A stretch of 64,000 nucleotides of DNA from NCBI GenBank assembly GCA_009839725.1, contig VXPF01000117.1:62001-126000 (forward strand). Reading direction: 5' to 3'. The stretch is from Dehalococcoidia bacterium. GTDB taxonomy: Bacteria > Chloroflexota > Dehalococcoidia > Tepidiformales > Tepidiformaceae. Below are positions 261 to 46,615 of the stretch, piece by piece. The notes under the pieces are model-generated. The model was not told the DNA's origin. It worked only from the letters and a program-made list of their open reading frames with translations, and made no database searches. Position numbers and translations under genes: made by a program. Each line of letters starts with the position of its first letter. The stretch's first letter is position 1.

Positions 261-626
261 TGGTGGAGACGCGGGAGAATCGAACTCCCGGTCCAGCCAG
301 GGTCTGCTCCGGATTGTCCTACAGGCTTTCCCACCAGTTGGGATCTCGTTCCGCCGCTCCGCAGGTGGGGGCCGAGGACGGTGGAACCAGCCGATGAATC
401 TTAGGTGAGCCGTATCGGCGTCAACTCACAGCGCCCCAACTTCTATGGCGCCTCACCGCGCTCCGTTGGGGAGGGAGCCATCGGTGAAACGTCTCACGGG
501 CTAAGCCGCGAGAGCGAGTTCGCGATCTTCGGCGCTTACTCAGATGGCCGCCTGTTTAACGAGGGTGACAGCCAACCTCGGCCTGCTACCCGGTTACGTT
601 CCCTCCTGTCGATACCTTTCGTCCCC
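261..626 (-). ncRNA. ssrA: transfer-messenger RNA (tmRNA)
   Basis: tmRNA rescues stalled ribosomes by acting first as tRNA-Ala and then as a template for a degradation tag. On the minus strand the 5' end GGGGACG pairs with CGTCTCC just before an encoded CCA, forming the 7-bp acceptor stem with one G-U pair. A T-arm with GGTTCGA-like sequence (GAGTTCGATTCTC) precedes the 3' end. The internal reading frame ends GAA CTC GCT CTC GCG GCT TAG, giving a tag ending DRELALAA, a typical hydrophobic LAA terminus. The exact resume codon, probably the Ser or Ala codon before GAAGAT, is inferred. smpB lies just upstream on the same strand, so the RNA and its protein partner form one locus. Confidence 0.93.
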
Positions 627-20531: not shown

Positions 20532-21365
20532 CTAGGAGACCGCGGCGGCGTTGCGCGCGCGCGCCCACTCGTGGGCCTCGTCGGAGGCGACCCACTTGAT
20601 GGCGTTGGCGAGCAGCCGGCGGTAGTTCGCGTTGTTGTAGGAGGTGGGCACGTCGCCCGCCTGCACGTAGACGATGGGGCTGTTGCGGTAGTTCTTCGCC
20701 CAGACCACCAGGTTCGGCGTCGGCGGGTGGGTCCAGTCGCCGCGCTCGTACATGCGGCCGTCGTTCACGACCAGCGAGGGCGAGAAGAAGTTCCTGTAGG
20801 TGAAGTCGAAATCGCTGCGGACGAGGGGCACGAGGCTGTCCTCGTGGTAGGGCGCCAGGTAGATCTCGTCCTGCAACTCGAACGAGAGGTCGACGCCCTG
20901 GACGACGGGGTGGTCGGCCTCTTCGTCGACCACGCTGCAGGTGTGGTTGGCAGCGAGGAGGTAGCCGGAGTCGGGGTAGTCGACGCCGCGCAGGCTGCCG
21001 GGGTTGTAGAAGAAGCGGCCGCCGATGATCTCCGCGTACTCCTCCCAGGCGGGCCAGGAGCAGATGTTGTGGTGGATCATGACGAGGCCCTTGCCCTCTT
21101 CGGTGAGGCGCATGTAGCCGTCCTTCAACTCCTGGGGCGGATCCGGGGGACCACCGACGCCGAAGACGCCCGGCATCGAGTAGTCGACGATGCAGTCGTA
21201 CTCGCGGGAGTTCTCGGGCTGGAAGAAGAGCTGGGCGGCGGGCTGCTCGACGTGCGTCCACGCGGAGATCTCACCCTCCTGCTGGAACGCATCGAACATC
21301 TGGAAGAAGGGTTCGCGCTGGAAGGGATGCCCCTTCGAGGCGAGCAGGACGTTGGGGGCGCTCAT
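20532..21365 (-). CDS. ThuA-like (glutamine-amidotransferase-fold) protein
   Basis: The 277-residue protein resembles the ThuA/trehalose-utilisation family: N-terminal VLLASKGHPFQREPF, YDCIVDYSMPG, GKGLVMIHHNICSWP with the strand-elbow region, GGRFFYNPG, HPVVQGVDLSFELQDEIYL and a late WAKNYRNSPIVYVQAG segment. Members have a flavodoxin/class I amidotransferase-like fold, often with sugar-related roles, but many are uncharacterised. Start chosen at MSAPNVLL. A zinc-ribbon protein follows in the same operon. Confidence 0.82.
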   Translation of the reverse strand: MSAPNVLLASKGHPFQREPFFQMFDAFQQEGEISAWTHVEQPAAQLFFQPENSREYDCIVDYSMPGVFGVGGPPDPPQELKDGYMRLTEEGKGLVMIHHNICSWPAWEEYAEIIGGRFFYNPGSLRGVDYPDSGYLLAANHTCSVVDEEADHPVVQGVDLSFELQDEIYLAPYHEDSLVPLVRSDFDFTYRNFFSPSLVVNDGRMYERGDWTHPPTPNLVVWAKNYRNSPIVYVQAGDVPTSYNNANYRRLLANAIKWVASDEAHEWARARNAAAVS

Positions 21366-21534
21366 GGCTGTGTCCTCCGTCTGGTCCGGATTGGCTGGCG
21401 CATTCTACGAGGTTCGCGAGGGCGGCGGGGCCAGTCTCGGTGGGCGTCACCTTGGCTGCCGGAGGAATGGCGCACAGAGCCACCGGCAATGGTGTCTGGT
21501 TGCCATGATTGTGTCATGGCGGCAGACTGCGCCG

Positions 21535-23058
21535 ATGCTTGCACGCGTGCAGTCGAGCGCGGTCGTTGGGCTCGACGGCGTCATGGTCGACGTCGAGGTC
21601 GACATTTCCCGTGCGCAGAACCCGACGACGGCGATCGTCGGGCTGCCCGACGCGGCCGTACAGGAGTCGAAGGAGCGGGTGCGGGCAGCCATCCGCAATA
21701 GCGCGCTCACGTGGCCGTTCAACAGCCGCATCGTCGTGAATCTGGCGCCGGCCGACCTGCGCAAGGAGGGCCCCGCCTACGACCTGCCCATCGCAGCGGG
21801 AGTGATGGTCGCGAGCGGGCAGGTGGAAGCCGACCTCGGCGACGCGGTGTTCGTGGGGGAGCTGGCGCTCGATGGGGAGGTGCGGAGCGTGCGGGGGGCA
21901 CTGCCGATGGTGGCGGTGGCGCGGGACCGGGGCGCGCGGCGAGCGTTCGTGCCGGCCCCGAACGCGCCCGAGGCAGCACTGGTGGACGGGCTCGAGGTGT
22001 ATCCCGTGGAGTCGCTCACGCAGCTGGCGGCGCACCTGCTGGGGAAGGCGCCGATCGCCCCGTACTCGCCGGACGACATAGACGAGGACGCGGAGTCACT
22101 GGGCCCGGACCTGGCCGACGTCATCGGGCAAGAGCACGCGAAGCGGGCGCTGGCGATGGCCGCGGCGGGCGGTCACAACCTGCTGATGCGGGGTCCGCCC
22201 GGCAGCGGAAAGACGCTGCTGGCGCGGGCCATCCCCTCGATCCTGCCGCCGATGACGAACGACGAGGCGCTGGAGGTGACGCGCATCTACAGCGTCGCGG
22301 GCCTCCTGCCGGCAGGCGCGGGGCTCGTGCGCGAGCGGCCGTTCCGGGCGCCCCACCACACGATCTCGCACGCGGGACTGGTGGGGGGAGGGTCCGTGCC
22401 GCGACCGGGAGAGATCACCCTGAGCCACCACGGCGTGCTCTTCCTCGATGAGCTTCCCGAGTTCGGGACGCAGGTGCTGGAGGTGCTGCGCCAGCCTCTG
22501 GAGGACCGCATCGTGACCATCAGCCGGGCGCGGCAATCGGCCACGTTCCCGGCGAGCTTCGCGCTGGTGGCGGCGCAGAACCCCTGTCCCTGCGGCTACC
22601 TCGGCGACCCCGTGCGGGAGTGCCGCTGTCCGGCGAACGCGGCGGCCCGCTACCAGCGGCGCGTCTCGGGGCCGGTGCTGGACCGGATCGACATCTTCAT
22701 CGACGTGCCCCGCGTCGACTACGAGAAGCTGGCGGCGGGGGCGAAGGGGGAGGCGTCGTCGGTGGTGGCGGCGCGGGTGCGGGAGGTGCGGGCGATCCAG
22801 CGGGAGCGCTTCGCGGGGACGGCCACGCGCCTGAACGCGGAGATGGGGCCGACGGAGGTGCGGGAGCACGCCCAGTGGAAGCTGGACGAGCAGGCGCAAC
22901 GCATCCTGAGCCAGGCGACGGCGCAGATGGCGCTCTCGGCACGGGCGTTCCACCGCGTGCTCAAGGTCGCGCGCACGGTGGCGGACTTCGACGGCAGCGA
23001 TGTGATCGGGAGCGCGCACGTGGCGGAGGCGTTGCAGTACCGGGAGCGGGCGGAGTAG
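21535..23058 (+). CDS. comM: YifB/ComM family Mg-chelatase-like ATPase
   Basis: AAA+ ATPase of the ComM type; the family includes hexameric helicases that promote branch migration during natural transformation. Start at ATG 21535 (507 residues, MLARVQSSAVVGLDG) follows the conserved family opening; the track start lies far upstream without support. N-terminal domain with VDISRAQNPTTAIVGLPDAAVQESKERVR, Walker A GPPGSGKTLLAR near 220, Walker B LFLDELPEF, Mg-chelatase part with QNPCPCGYLGDP and C-terminal helical lid. It is divergent from the ThuA gene and directly upstream of the SOS-type promoter. Confidence 0.93.
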   Translation: MLARVQSSAVVGLDGVMVDVEVDISRAQNPTTAIVGLPDAAVQESKERVRAAIRNSALTWPFNSRIVVNLAPADLRKEGPAYDLPIAAGVMVASGQVEADLGDAVFVGELALDGEVRSVRGALPMVAVARDRGARRAFVPAPNAPEAALVDGLEVYPVESLTQLAAHLLGKAPIAPYSPDDIDEDAESLGPDLADVIGQEHAKRALAMAAAGGHNLLMRGPPGSGKTLLARAIPSILPPMTNDEALEVTRIYSVAGLLPAGAGLVRERPFRAPHHTISHAGLVGGGSVPRPGEITLSHHGVLFLDELPEFGTQVLEVLRQPLEDRIVTISRARQSATFPASFALVAAQNPCPCGYLGDPVRECRCPANAAARYQRRVSGPVLDRIDIFIDVPRVDYEKLAAGAKGEASSVVAARVREVRAIQRERFAGTATRLNAEMGPTEVREHAQWKLDEQAQRILSQATAQMALSARAFHRVLKVARTVADFDGSDVIGSAHVAEALQYRERAE

Positions 23059-23071
23059 GCAAACACGGTTA

Positions 23072-23128
23072 GAACATACGTGTTGACAGGCGAACGGACG
23101 TTCGCTATGGTGTTCGGACCCTGCGAAC
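23072..23128 (+). promoter_or_regulatory. SOS promoter: -35/-10 with LexA box in the spacer
   Basis: TTGACA (23083-23088) and TATGGT (23106-23111) are 17 bases apart. The spacer holds CGAACGGACGTTCG (23091-23104), a perfect CGAAC-N4-GTTCG LexA box as used by Gram-positive-type and related LexA proteins. A degenerate half-match GAACATACGTGT (23072-23083) overlaps the -35 side, and GTTCG-N7-CGAAC (23112-23128) covers the start region. LexA bound here would block polymerase directly. Confidence 0.82.
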
Positions 23129-23141
23129 GGATGTGCTAGCC

Positions 23142-23399
23142 ATGGTGAACACCATCCCCACCATCATCGTCGAAGTTCTCCTCGCCGGATCTGCGGTCGC
23201 GCTTCTTGGAGCGACCATTCGCTCCATGCTTCCGCGGCGGGGAGCGCGGCGCCGGGGTGGGTTGCGCGTGCTGGACGTCCCGCGAGTGGCCCTGTGGCAA
23301 CCGCGGCGGCGGTCCGTTCGAGGAGAGTTGCGTCCGGCCCTGGGCCGCGTGGAACCCCTCGCCACGCGGCGCCAGGAGCTGGCGCGGCGCGCTTCGTAG
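23142..23399 (+). CDS. small membrane protein under SOS control
   Basis: An 85-residue protein beginning MVNTIPTII (ATG 23142; a GTG nine bases earlier, 23133, is the track start). One strong membrane helix, IPTIIVEVLLAGSAVALLGATI at about 4-26, is followed by a long arginine-rich tail (PRRGARRRGG ... RRQELARRAS). It sits about 24-30 bases after the -10 of the LexA-box promoter, with no strong ribosome site, and ends four bases from the converging rel stop. Small single-helix SOS proteins in other phyla (SidA, DidA, YneA-type) delay cell division; similarity here is in architecture and control only, not sequence. A repair or toxin role is also possible. Confidence 0.68.
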   Translation: MVNTIPTIIVEVLLAGSAVALLGATIRSMLPRRGARRRGGLRVLDVPRVALWQPRRRSVRGELRPALGRVEPLATRRQELARRAS

Positions 23400-23403
23400 C
23401 AGC

Positions 23404-25599
23404 CTAGTTGGTCTTGCGCGCGCAGCTGCGCACGCCGCGAATCGTCTCGATTCGGGTGAGCAGCCTCGATATCTGTGACAACCCGCTTGTTTCCAGCGTG
23501 GCGAGGACGGAAACGGTTCCGTTGCCGTTCTTGGTCGTGTTGACGTTGACCATGTTGACGTCTTCCGCCGCCACCAGCGTGCTGATATCGCGAAGAAGCC
23601 CGACGCGGTCCCAGGCGTCGATGTGGACGGTGGCCGGGTAGCGCTGCTCGTCAGTGCGGCCCCAGTCGAGATCGATGAGGCGGTCGGGCTCGCGCTCGTG
23701 CAGGACGTTGTGGCAATCGGCGCGGTGGACGGTGACGCCACGGCTGCGCGTGACGTAGCCGCGCACGCTGTCTCCGGGCACGGGATTGCAGCAGCGCGCG
23801 AGGGTTGTCTCCAGGCCTCCGGCGGCGAGGCCGCGCAGGCCCGGGCCGCTGCCCGGGCTGGAGGGACGGCCCAGGGGAATCTCGTCGAGGTCGTCGGGTT
23901 CGTGGTGCTGCTGGAGGAGGGCGCTCGCCTTGTGCGTGACCGATTCGACGCTGACATCGCCGTAGCCGATGTTGGCGAGCAGGTCGTTCCAGGTCTTTCC
24001 GGGGAAGAGGGCAACGAGCTCGTCCTGGTGGTCGGCGATGTCGAAGCCGAGGCGGCGCAGCTCGCGCTCCAGCATGTCGCGCCCGCGATCGATGCTCTCC
24101 GCCTTGCGCTGCTTGCGGAACCATTGCCGCACCTTCTGGCGGCCGGTGGTGGTCTGCAGGTAGCCGAGGCTCTCGCTGAGCCAGTCGCGCGAGGGGCCGC
24201 TGCGGGAGCGGCTGCGCATGATCTCGACGACGTCGCCGTTCTGCAGGGTTGAGTTGAGCGCCGCCATCTTGCCGTTGACCTTGGCGCCGATGGTCTGGTG
24301 GCCGAGGTCGGTGTGGATGCGGTAGGCGAAGTCGAGGGGGGTGGCGCCGGCGGGGAGGTCGAGCACATCGCCCCGGGGCGAGAGCACGAACACCTGGTCG
24401 TCGAACACGTCGGTCTTGACGCTCTCGACGAACTCCTCGGCGCCCGAAAGTTCGCGCTGCCACTCAAGCAGCTGGCGCAGCCAGGCGATGCGCTCCTCAT
24501 CCTGGGAAGAGCGGTCGGTGGACCCCTTGTAGCGCCAGTGGGCGGCGACGCCGTACTCGGCCACGCGGTGCATCTCGTAGGTGCGGATCTGCACTTCGAG
24601 GGGGCGGTTTCCCGGGCCGATGACGGTCGTGTGCAGGGACTGGTACATGCTCGCCTTGGGGCTGGCGATGTAGTCATCGAACTGCCCCGGGAGGGGACGC
24701 CAGGTGGAGTGGACCACGCCGAGGGCGGCGTAGCAGTCGGAGACGTCCTTCACGAGGATGCGGAGGGCGAGGAGGTCGTAAATCTGATCGAAAGACTTGG
24801 CCTCGCGGCCGTAGCGATTCGCCTTCTGGAAGATGGAGTAGATGTGCTTGGCGCGGCCGGTCACCTCGGCCTCGATGCGGGCGTCGTCGAGCTGGGTTCG
24901 CAGCCCCGCGGCGACGTCCTCGATGTAGCGTTCGCGGGCAAGCCGGGTCGCGTCGAGGCGGGCGGCAATCTCCTGGTAGCGCTCCGGCTCGAGGTAACGG
25001 AAGGCGAGATCCTCCAGCTCCCACTTGATCTGCCAGATCCCGAGGCGGGTCGCGAGTGGGGCGAAGATCTCCATGGTCTCGCGGGCGATGCGGTGCTGCT
25101 TCTCATCGGAGAGCGCATAGAGCGTGCGCATGTTGTGGAGGCGATCGCAGAGCTTGATGAGGACGACGCGCACGTCGGCGGCCATAGCGAGCAGCATCTT
25201 GCGGAGGTTCTGGGCCTGGACCCCGCCGCCCTCCTCCTCCGTCACGCGCAGGGGGAGGCTATCGAGCTTGGTCAGCCCCTCGACGAGCTGGGCGGCGTCG
25301 TCGCCGAAGCGGTCGGCGATCTCCTCGTTGGGCACGCCGCAGTCCTCCTGCACGTCGTGCAGGAGGGCGGCGATGAGGGAAGGCTGGTCGAGCTCGAGCC
25401 CGGCGACGAGCTTGGTCACTTCCAGGGGATGGGTGATGTAGGGGTCGCCGGTGCGGCGCATCTGGCCCTGGTGGCTCTTCTCGGCGAAGGCGTAGGCCTC
25501 GGCGATACGCTCGACTCGCTCGGATGGGAGGTAGCTCCCGACGGTGTCGAGGAGGTCCGTGACGGCGGTGGTTTCCGGAGAGCTCTCCAGGACGCTCAC
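23404..25599 (-). CDS. rel: bifunctional (p)ppGpp synthetase/hydrolase (Rel/SpoT)
   Basis: Controls the stringent response by making and breaking ppGpp. The 731 residues carry in order: HD hydrolase (ITHPLEVTKLV, LLHDVQEDCG, LCDRLHNMRT), synthetase (FDQIYDLLALRILV, YQSLHTTVIGP, EVQIRTYEMHRVAEYGVAAHW), TGS (VFVLSPRGDVLDLPAGATPLDFAYRIHTDLGH) and a C-terminal ACT domain (DRVGLLRDISTLVAAEDVNMVNVN). Intact HD residues argue for a bifunctional enzyme. Divergent from hisS, a neighbour seen in many bacteria. Confidence 0.96.
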   Translation of the reverse strand: MSVLESSPETTAVTDLLDTVGSYLPSERVERIAEAYAFAEKSHQGQMRRTGDPYITHPLEVTKLVAGLELDQPSLIAALLHDVQEDCGVPNEEIADRFGDDAAQLVEGLTKLDSLPLRVTEEEGGGVQAQNLRKMLLAMAADVRVVLIKLCDRLHNMRTLYALSDEKQHRIARETMEIFAPLATRLGIWQIKWELEDLAFRYLEPERYQEIAARLDATRLARERYIEDVAAGLRTQLDDARIEAEVTGRAKHIYSIFQKANRYGREAKSFDQIYDLLALRILVKDVSDCYAALGVVHSTWRPLPGQFDDYIASPKASMYQSLHTTVIGPGNRPLEVQIRTYEMHRVAEYGVAAHWRYKGSTDRSSQDEERIAWLRQLLEWQRELSGAEEFVESVKTDVFDDQVFVLSPRGDVLDLPAGATPLDFAYRIHTDLGHQTIGAKVNGKMAALNSTLQNGDVVEIMRSRSRSGPSRDWLSESLGYLQTTTGRQKVRQWFRKQRKAESIDRGRDMLERELRRLGFDIADHQDELVALFPGKTWNDLLANIGYGDVSVESVTHKASALLQQHHEPDDLDEIPLGRPSSPGSGPGLRGLAAGGLETTLARCCNPVPGDSVRGYVTRSRGVTVHRADCHNVLHEREPDRLIDLDWGRTDEQRYPATVHIDAWDRVGLLRDISTLVAAEDVNMVNVNTTKNGNGTVSVLATLETSGLSQISRLLTRIETIRGVRSCARKTN

Positions 25600-40279: not shown

Positions 40280-40304
40280 GAGAGACCCCCACGTGAGGTC
40301 CCTC
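40280..40304 (-). promoter_or_regulatory. candidate expression-platform hairpin of the riboswitch
   Basis: On the minus strand GAGGGACC pairs with GGTCTCTC across a 9-base loop (one G-U). It begins directly after the aptamer P1 3' arm, where a terminator or antiterminator is expected. No clear U-tract follows. Confidence 0.45.
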
Positions 40305-40306
40305 CT

Positions 40307-40436
40307 ACGCCGGCGGGGTTAGCTGTCGGGCTACGACTGGAGGTGCCGTCCGCTTTCGCGGTACGCCCCTGAATGTGGCGGTTCCCCCGCTCCCCCGGAG
40401 GGGATTTGGCGGCAGCAGATGCTGCCCATCCAGCGT
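40307..40436 (-). promoter_or_regulatory. cyclic-di-AMP riboswitch aptamer (ydaO/yuaA type)
   Basis: The minus strand carries the conserved blocks of this class: CGGGGGAGCGGGGGAACC, AGGGGCGTACCGCGAAAGCGG and CCCGACAGCTAACCCCG. Outer stem P1 is ACGCTGG with CCGGCGT (one G-U), and GGCAGC-ATCT-GCTGCC forms an inner hairpin. c-di-AMP aptamers usually control cell-wall hydrolases, K+ or osmolyte transport. Here the next gene on the strand is a 62-residue orphan. Confidence 0.88.
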
Positions 40437-45496: not shown

Positions 45497-46615
45497 ATGA
45501 AGTTCGGGGTCTTCTTCGAGATATCGGTGCCGCGTCCGTGGGGCCCGGAGACCGAGTACACGGTGTACCAGAACTGCCTGGAGCAGGCTCGGGTCGCCGA
45601 CGAACTGGGGTTCGACCAGGCATGGGCGGTGGAGCACCACTTCCTGGAGGAGTACTCGCACTGCTCGGCGCCGGAGATCTTCCTGACGGCGATCGCGATG
45701 CAGACGAAGCAGATCCGCGTGGGGCACGGCATCGTGACGTGCGTTCCCGAGCTGAACAGCCCGATCCGTGCGGCCAAGCGCGGCGCCGTGCTCGACCTCG
45801 TGTCGGGCGGGCGGCTGGAGTTCGGCACGGGCCGCTCGGCGACGTGGACGGAGCTCGGCGGCTTCGGCGCGAACCCGGACGAGACGAAGAAGACGTGGGA
45901 CGAGTACGTGCGCGTCATCCCGAAGATGTGGACGCAGGACCGCTTCAGCTGGCAGGGCCGGGCGTTCTCGATGCCCGAGCGCAGCGTCCTCCCGAAGCCG
46001 TACCAGAAACCGCACCCGCCTATGTGGGTGGCAGTGACGAGCGTGGGCACGGAAATCGACGCGGCCGAGCGGGGGCTCGGCAGCCTGGGGCTCTCCTTTG
46101 GGGGCGTGGGCGAGCAGGCACAGAAGATCGCCGGCTACCGCAAGCGCATCCAGTCATGCGACCCCGTGGGCGAGTTCGTGAACGAGCAGGTCAACACCGT
46201 CAGCTTCCTCTACTGCCACGAGGACGACGAGAAGGGGATCACGACGGGCCAGCGCATGGCCGGGACGTTCAACTACCTCTCCGAGCAGACGCTGGCGACG
46301 CGGCAGGCGTACCCGACGCCGTCGTACCTGTCGCCGGGGCTGCTGTACCAGCTGCGGCAGGAGTCGACGAGCGGACCCGAGGGCCGGGTGCCCGAGGGCC
46401 TCACGATCGGCGATCCGCACCGGGTGGCGCAGGCCGTGCGTCGCTGGGAAGAGGCAGGCGTGGACCGCATCAACTTCCTGCTGAACGTGCACGAGATGGT
46501 CCCGCAGGAGGACGTGCTCGCCTCGATGCGGCTGTTCGCGAGGGAAGTGATGCCGCAGTTCCAGGGCGACCAGGCGGCTGAGCCCGCCGGGGCCACGGCG
46601 GCGGGCGGCGCCTGA
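45497..46615 (+). CDS. LLM-class flavin-dependent oxidoreductase
   Basis: Bacterial luciferase-like monooxygenase of 372 residues starting MKFGVFFEISVPRPW, with GAGGGGAG-type ribosome site. Typical: ARVADELGFDQAWAVEHHF, IRVGHGIVTCVPELNSPIRAAK, LDLVSGGRLEFGTGR, PKPYQKPHPPMWVAV and a late VDRINFLLNVHE. Uses FMN or F420; the AVEHHF motif is common in FMN members. Its stop overlaps the ATG of the next gene (TGATG), so both act together. Substrate not known. Confidence 0.92.
   Translation: MKFGVFFEISVPRPWGPETEYTVYQNCLEQARVADELGFDQAWAVEHHFLEEYSHCSAPEIFLTAIAMQTKQIRVGHGIVTCVPELNSPIRAAKRGAVLDLVSGGRLEFGTGRSATWTELGGFGANPDETKKTWDEYVRVIPKMWTQDRFSWQGRAFSMPERSVLPKPYQKPHPPMWVAVTSVGTEIDAAERGLGSLGLSFGGVGEQAQKIAGYRKRIQSCDPVGEFVNEQVNTVSFLYCHEDDEKGITTGQRMAGTFNYLSEQTLATRQAYPTPSYLSPGLLYQLRQESTSGPEGRVPEGLTIGDPHRVAQAVRRWEEAGVDRINFLLNVHEMVPQEDVLASMRLFAREVMPQFQGDQAAEPAGATAAGGA

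What the first reader, a model, noticed from the sequence alone, without database searches (positions are those of the whole stretch)
23072..23399. SOS promoter with a perfect LexA box driving an undescribed small membrane protein
A TTGACA-17-TATGGT promoter contains CGAACGGACGTTCG inside the spacer, with a degenerate site overlapping the -35 and another GTTCG/CGAAC pair over the start region. The only gene that can be served is an 85-residue protein with one membrane helix and a long arginine-rich tail, unlike neighbouring genes. The arrangement resembles SOS division-inhibitor genes (SidA, DidA, YneA) in position and size but not in sequence, so it may be a lineage-specific checkpoint protein or a damage-induced toxin.
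Basis: partly seen in the sequence, partly recalled or inferred. Interest (0 to 1): 0.82.

Follow-up and report, generated by a model that had tools for sequence, protein, structure and literature searches.

The report
SOS-controlled small membrane protein family, Dehalococcoidia
A tiny, undescribed membrane protein in a lineage of Chloroflexota bacteria sits under a promoter with up to three LexA operator sites that is kept in nearly every relative, so it is almost certainly switched on by DNA damage and may be this lineage's cell-division brake.

Summary
The 14-mer CGAACGGACGTTCG (23091-23104) lies in the 17-bp spacer of TTGACA/TATGGT. The organism's own lexA, dinB and recA carry the same kind of box. 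A LexA matrix built only from other operators ranks this site 1st in the 64-kb window, the site before the start codon (23124-23137) 2nd, and the site over the -35 (23072-23083) 16th. The 85-aa ORF is real. Orthologues occur in 32 of 38 genomes of its order by profile, 34 with an operator-guided search, and in none of the other class or phylum genomes sampled. The LexA sites stay at fixed spacing (about 20 and 33 bp), usually all three, even where the protein is barely recognisable. Codons are under purifying selection (dN/dS 0.16 in the membrane helix, 0.50 in the tail). The helix keeps T7 in 35/35 and D/E/Q11 in 35/35. The tail is Arg-rich (net +3 to +15) and predicted cytoplasmic. 29/35 proteins end in [AVIL][AS] against 2/32 local genes, resembling the genome's tmRNA tag (...ALAA). 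No Pfam, NCBIfam, PADLOC or PDB relative was found. LexA control is near certain from sequence. Division inhibition is the best reading but inferred; a pore toxin or nucleic-acid tether remain open.

The parts
23142..23399 (+). ORF, 85 aa: N-terminal membrane helix (residues about 5-29), Arg-rich tail (net charge +13), C-terminus LARRAS; stop codon included
   Evidence: orthologues; purifying selection; AlphaFold2 helix 5-29 with block pLDDT about 88-96, tail mostly unstructured
23083..23088 (+). -35 hexamer TTGACA, conserved in most orthologous promoters
23106..23111 (+). -10 hexamer TATGGT (TAnnnT is typical of relatives), 17-bp spacing
23072..23083 (+). LexA-like site 1, GAACATACGTGT, overlapping the -35; rank 16 of the window with independent matrix
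23091..23104 (+). LexA site 2, perfect palindrome CGAACGGACGTTCG in the promoter spacer; rank 1 of the window
23124..23137 (+). LexA-like site 3, CGAACGGATGTGCT, between the -10 and the start codon; rank 2 of the window; most invariant of the three across relatives
21190..23058 (+). Upstream neighbour comM (Mg-chelatase-like); context only. The ORF start listed is mechanical and probably too far upstream
23404..25599 (-). Convergent downstream neighbour relA (RelA/SpoT), ends 4 bp from the small gene's stop; convergent neighbour in 31 of 35 orthologous loci; context only

Best explanation
The locus is a LexA-repressed checkpoint gene. In undamaged cells LexA sits on up to three operators that cover the -35, the spacer and the transcript start, keeping a near-consensus promoter shut. 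After damage, RecA-driven LexA self-cleavage opens it and a burst of a 66-99 aa single-pass membrane protein is made. By the positive-inside rule its N-terminus lies outside and its Arg-rich tail inside. The membrane helix, with a conserved T7-x3-[D/E/Q]11 face, is proposed to dock on a membrane partner of the divisome (FtsW or its partners being the likeliest) and hold division until repair. When LexA re-forms, the protein is proposed to be removed through its exposed tmRNA-tag-like C-terminus (-AA/-AS/-VA) by a ClpXP-type protease. Shown by sequence: operator architecture, conservation, coding, helix plus basic tail, C-terminal motif, presence of an FtsW/RodA-family gene. Inferred: LexA binding, induction, topology, division target, degradation.
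For: LexA box type established in-house: lexA of this genome and of family members has CGAACAT[C/G]CGTTCG just before its start; dinB, recA and ruvB carry such boxes. Independent-matrix ranks 1, 2, 16 in 64 kb. In 34 promoters, site 2 scores >5 bits in 33, site 3 in 34 (site 3 was part of the selection), site 1 in 27; spacing between sites 1 and 2 is 20 bp in 28 of 34, and between sites 2 and 3 it is 32-36 bp in 33 of 34; shuffled promoters give about 0.07 such sites. Orthologues in 32/38 genomes of the order, plus G014 and G021 found by operator alone at the same place beside relA. dN/dS 0.16 for residues 1-30 and 0.50 for the tail within the genus. T7 35/35 and D/E/Q11 35/35 (those two columns also served as alignment anchor, and all 35 sequences have them). 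C-termini 29/35 [AVIL][AS] against 2/32 window genes; own tmRNA tag reads ...DRELALAA. Two FtsW/RodA-family genes in the genome. Known precedent: SidA and YneA act on FtsW, YneA docking through its membrane segment (PMC4211646, PMC13396833).
Against: No homology to any known division inhibitor or any Pfam/NCBIfam/PADLOC family. Predicted topology (tail inside) is the reverse of YneA, SosA, ChiZ and DivS. In YneA the membrane helix alone localises but does not inhibit, so a tail function would be needed too, and none is known. The conserved-face periodicity of the helix is only suggestive (7% of shuffles reach it). The C-terminal -AS of this genus is a weaker degron match than -LAA. No expression or phenotype data exist; these are uncultured MAGs.
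Confidence: 0.5

Rival explanations
1. SOS-induced membrane toxin of the TisB type: the helix inserts, depolarises the membrane and imposes dormancy after heavy damage; the tight operators keep a harmful product off.
For: Single hydrophobic helix and multi-site operator locking a strong promoter. TisB is a precedent for SOS-controlled small membrane toxins (PMC11575346, listed).
Against: The leader is only about 20 nt by the predicted -10 and no antitoxin ORF or gene lies between comM and the promoter or before relA. An invariant T and D/E/Q inside the helix and a long tail kept basic suggest a specific partner. It is a chromosomal gene in a fixed place across an order, unlike typical patchy toxins.
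Confidence: 0.17
2. Membrane tether for nucleic acid or ribosomes: the Arg-rich cytoplasmic tail binds DNA/RNA after damage, anchoring the nucleoid or slowing replication, transcription or translation.
For: Tail carries 5-17 Arg per 37-70 residues, net +3 to +15, is kept basic while its sequence drifts, and is predicted mostly unstructured.
Against: The strongest sequence constraint is in the membrane helix, not the tail (dN/dS 0.16 against 0.50). A merely anchoring helix would not need an invariant polar residue.
Confidence: 0.15
3. SOS-induced regulator of some other membrane process, for example a protease, transporter or peptidoglycan elongation (RodA) partner, rather than division.
For: The helix looks like an interaction helix and the partner is not identified by any test here; two SEDS-family genes are present.
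Against: No specific evidence for any such partner; known SOS small membrane proteins with a docking helix mostly act on division.
Confidence: 0.12
4. The conserved output is not the protein but the RNA: SOS transcription toward the convergent relA produces antisense or interference that lowers RelA during damage.
For: The gene ends 4 bp from relA and relA is the convergent neighbour in 31 of 35 loci.
Against: Four loci (G009, G011, G025, G030) keep operator and ORF without relA beside them within the 1.5-kb flank. The ORF is under codon-level purifying selection. The gap to relA is larger in other genera.
Confidence: 0.06

Closest known systems
SidA (Caulobacter), LexA-controlled division inhibitor
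   Same: LexA-repressed, tiny single-pass membrane protein; helix is the core of the protein
   Different: SidA is 29 aa; this one is 66-99 aa with a long Arg-rich tail; no sequence link established (SidA sequence not compared here)
YneA (Bacillus) / ChiZ (Mycobacterium)
   Same: LexA-repressed single-pass membrane protein; removed by proteolysis in YneA, possibly short-lived here too
   Different: No LysM domain in any member; predicted C-terminus inside rather than outside
SosA (Staphylococcus)
   Same: 77 aa, SOS-induced, one helix, same chromosomal place across a lineage, C-terminus implicated in turnover
   Different: SosA tail is extracellular and proposed to be cut by CtpA; here the tail is strongly basic, predicted cytoplasmic, with a tmRNA-tag-like end
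TisB (E. coli)
   Same: SOS-controlled hydrophobic small membrane protein
   Different: TisB is a depolarising toxin paired with an antisense RNA; no such partner, short leader, and an invariant polar helix position here
Multi-box SOS promoters such as colicin promoters
   Same: More than one LexA operator on one promoter for a potentially harmful product (own knowledge)
   Different: Chromosomal core gene of an order, three sites at near-helical spacing of about 20 and 33 bp

Membership tests
LexA (SOS) regulon of this organism | Operator of the same type as that of lexA itself, placed to block the promoter | tested here: met
LexA (SOS) regulon of this organism | Operator conserved with the gene in relatives | tested here: met
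LexA (SOS) regulon of this organism | LexA binds; transcript rises after DNA damage | not testable with these tools
   needs gel shift and RT-qPCR
YneA/ChiZ LysM-type division inhibitors | C-terminal LysM domain | tested here: not met
   no Pfam match at E<=0.1 in 20 members
YneA/SosA/DivS-type inhibitors | Extracellular C-terminus | tested here: inconclusive
   charge bias (N-terminus 0 or -1, tail +3 to +15) predicts C-inside; not measured
SidA-type inhibitors | Single membrane helix, LexA control | tested here: met
   (helix and LexA control are predictions from sequence)
SidA-type inhibitors | Binds FtsW/FtsN and blocks division | not testable with these tools
   an FtsW/RodA-family target exists in the genome but the interaction was not tested
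TisB-type toxin-antitoxin | Cis or adjacent antisense antitoxin RNA and long structured leader | tested here: inconclusive
   predicted leader about 20 nt, no Rfam RNA near 23 kb, no adjacent small gene; an undescribed RNA cannot be excluded

The most novel reading that the evidence does not exclude
A new, order-wide class of SOS checkpoint effector with inverted (tail-inside) topology: a docking helix with an invariant buried T-x3-[D/E/Q] motif, an Arg-rich cytoplasmic tail as the acting part, and a built-in tmRNA-tag-like C-terminal degron for recovery, unrelated to SulA, SidA, YneA or SosA.
Probability: 0.35. Interest if true: 0.78.

Novelty: new variant of a known kind. Interest (0 to 1): 0.62.

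Why it matters
SOS division brakes have been invented repeatedly in different lineages. I found no paper on SOS in Dehalococcoidia in the held library (limited searches). This gives a ready, testable candidate for that lineage, defined by an operator so conserved that it finds the gene even when the protein sequence has drifted beyond recognition. If confirmed, it adds an independent origin with apparently reversed topology and would test the proposal that FtsW is the common target.

Tried and rejected
Genome-contig scan returned only five close relatives, all labelled Dehalococcoidia/Chloroflexi MAGs; GTDB names could not be had. Viral scan found no relative. PHROGs gave only single-member weak hits (best 0.015), and the NCBIfam FeoB (0.082) and PDB (0.39) hits are chance. 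ARAGORN missed the tmRNA that Rfam finds, so the tag was read by eye from the frame. Fold search was not run: a single helix plus a disordered tail would match anything. The other perfect palindrome in the window, 45601-45614, lies inside a coding region about 100 bp after a start-like ATG and was judged a chance match. Weak single-sequence protein hits outside the family mostly matched inside long Arg-rich frames and were dismissed; those with an operator were kept. A promoter of similar look in another family (G044) leads to a Y-family polymerase, not this protein.

Full report
Setting. The window is part of a 2.83-Mb, 160-contig genome assembly (92% complete). Closest named relatives in the genome collection are MAGs labelled Dehalococcoidia / Chloroflexi bacterium. 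Neighbours of the feature are comM (same strand, ends 23058) and relA (opposite strand, 23404-25599).

The sequence reads GAACATACGTG-TTGACA-GGCGAACGGACGTTCGC-TATGGT, then CGAACGGATGTGCT and the ATG at 23142. The 85-codon ORF ends at 23399. The window has 10 matches to CGAACN4GTTCG with up to one mismatch against 3.3 expected, but only two perfect ones, and the whole genome has only six perfect ones.

The box is the right box. The lexA gene of this genome has CGAACATCCGTTCG 13 bases before the position where its profile match begins, and family relatives have the same word or CGAACATGCGTTCG. dinB has CGAACGGGTGTTCG directly before its ATG. recA has GCGAACAGGCGTTCTA and ruvB GAACATCCGTTC upstream (identities by Pfam). 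A symmetric matrix built only from such operators (lexA of the family and a few other class members, plus recA, dinB and ruvB) ranks site 2 first, site 3 second and site 1 sixteenth among all positions of the window. This is strong evidence that the promoter belongs to the SOS regulon. Binding itself is inferred.

The gene is conserved with its operator. A protein search found matches in all nine genomes of the genus, G004 and G008 being diverged. Reading upstream of these and of weak hits in other genera showed the same promoter anatomy. A profile from 20 members finds 32 of 38 genomes of the order, 32 of 393 genomes sampled from the class with none outside this family, and in the phylum sample of 400 only four family members (only a limited number of candidates per genome was scored, so remote relatives could be missed). 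Searching the remaining family genomes with TTGAC-N34-48-GAACGGATGT gave G014 and G021. Both have an ORF of the same build at the same place beside relA, and the wider profile then matched G021, which had been added to it. So 34 of 38 genomes have it; the four without (G010, G016, G026, G029) are 78-89% complete. G024 has a second copy on a short contig, possibly strain mixture.

Operator geometry. Over 34 promoters the distance between sites 1 and 2 is 20 bp in 28, and between sites 2 and 3 it is 32-36 bp in 33, near two and three helical turns. Site 2 scores above 5 bits in 33, site 3 in 34 and site 1 in 27; shuffled promoters give 0.04-0.13 such sites per region. Caveat: site 3 helped to define this set, so its 34/34 is partly by construction. 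But all except G014 and G021 had been found by protein alone, and the one locus left out of the set (G019) has a one-base variant.

It is a protein. Among genus members substitutions by codon position are 423/309/673, median dN/dS 0.33 overall, 0.16 for residues 1-30 and 0.50 for the tail. AlphaFold2 gives one confident helix, residues 5-29, and a low-confidence tail. In 35 sequences residue 7 is T in all and residue 11 is D (29), Q (5) or E (1); L14 in 33; A18 in 29. These lie on one helical face, though the overall conservation periodicity is only suggestive (7% of shuffles). The N-terminal five residues carry charge 0 or -1 and the tail +3 to +15, which by the positive-inside rule puts the tail in the cytoplasm. 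29 of 35 proteins end in [AVIL][AS], against 2 of 32 predicted genes of the window. The genome's tmRNA (window 626-261, minus strand) appears to encode a tag ending ...DRELALAA (my reading of the frame printed). A cytoplasmic, tag-like C-terminus would suit rapid removal by ClpXP; this step is inference.

Mechanism. A strong promoter shut by up to three LexA sites points to a product that is harmful when not needed. Small single-helix SOS proteins of this size known elsewhere mostly stop division: SidA interacts with FtsW (PMC4211646), YneA docks on FtsW through its membrane segment (PMC13396833), and SosA is a 77-aa counterpart in staphylococci (PMC6851548). The genome has two FtsW/RodA-family genes. 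I therefore favour a division brake that docks in the membrane through the T7/D11 face, at 50%. It is not a member of the YneA/ChiZ family (no LysM) and its predicted topology is opposite to YneA and SosA. It has no Pfam, NCBIfam, PADLOC or PDB relative.

Rivals. A depolarising toxin (no antitoxin or long leader seen; the invariant polar helix residue argues for a partner), a nucleic-acid tether through the Arg tail, a partner of another membrane process, and antisense control of relA (weak: four loci lack relA next door, and the ORF is under codon selection).

Verdict. Ordinary as regulation, new as a gene family: an order-wide SOS gene I found no description of, with a very conserved operator and no known homologues. 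Function remains to be tested.

Noticed in passing
window 261-626 (-): tmRNA gene found by Rfam (122.9 bits) but missed by ARAGORN; apparent tag ends DRELALAA.
   Followed up: partly
window 40293-40421 (-): c-di-AMP riboswitch (ydaO/yuaA leader) above gathering score.
   Followed up: no
L127 (G000:C14:13088) and L128 (G000:C33:7044): LexA-type palindrome AGAACGTCCGTTCT upstream of two closely similar serine-recombinase-like genes, suggesting SOS-controlled mobile elements.
   Followed up: no
L126 (G000:C11:3159) and L131 (G000:C64:15302): Palindrome GAACATCCGTTC in a nearly duplicated stretch before a helix-turn-helix regulator (118 aa); probably a repeated mobile element with SOS-linked control.
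   Followed up: no
L133 (G000:C38:3328): LexA-like box GAACATCCGTGC overlapping the start of a large DEAD-box helicase gene; a candidate further SOS member.
   Followed up: partly
L143 (G020:C1:421237-421362): 36-residue ORF MSGAAIATILIQSVLVGSALVLGAVVVRDFLGEVRR resembling the helix alone (T-x3-Q, GSA) without the basic tail, inside another gene cluster and without a LexA box directly upstream.
   Followed up: partly
L064 (G044:C27:41958): In another family of the class, TTGACA plus GAACATATGTTC directly precedes a Y-family-polymerase-like gene, extending this LexA box type across the class.
   Followed up: partly
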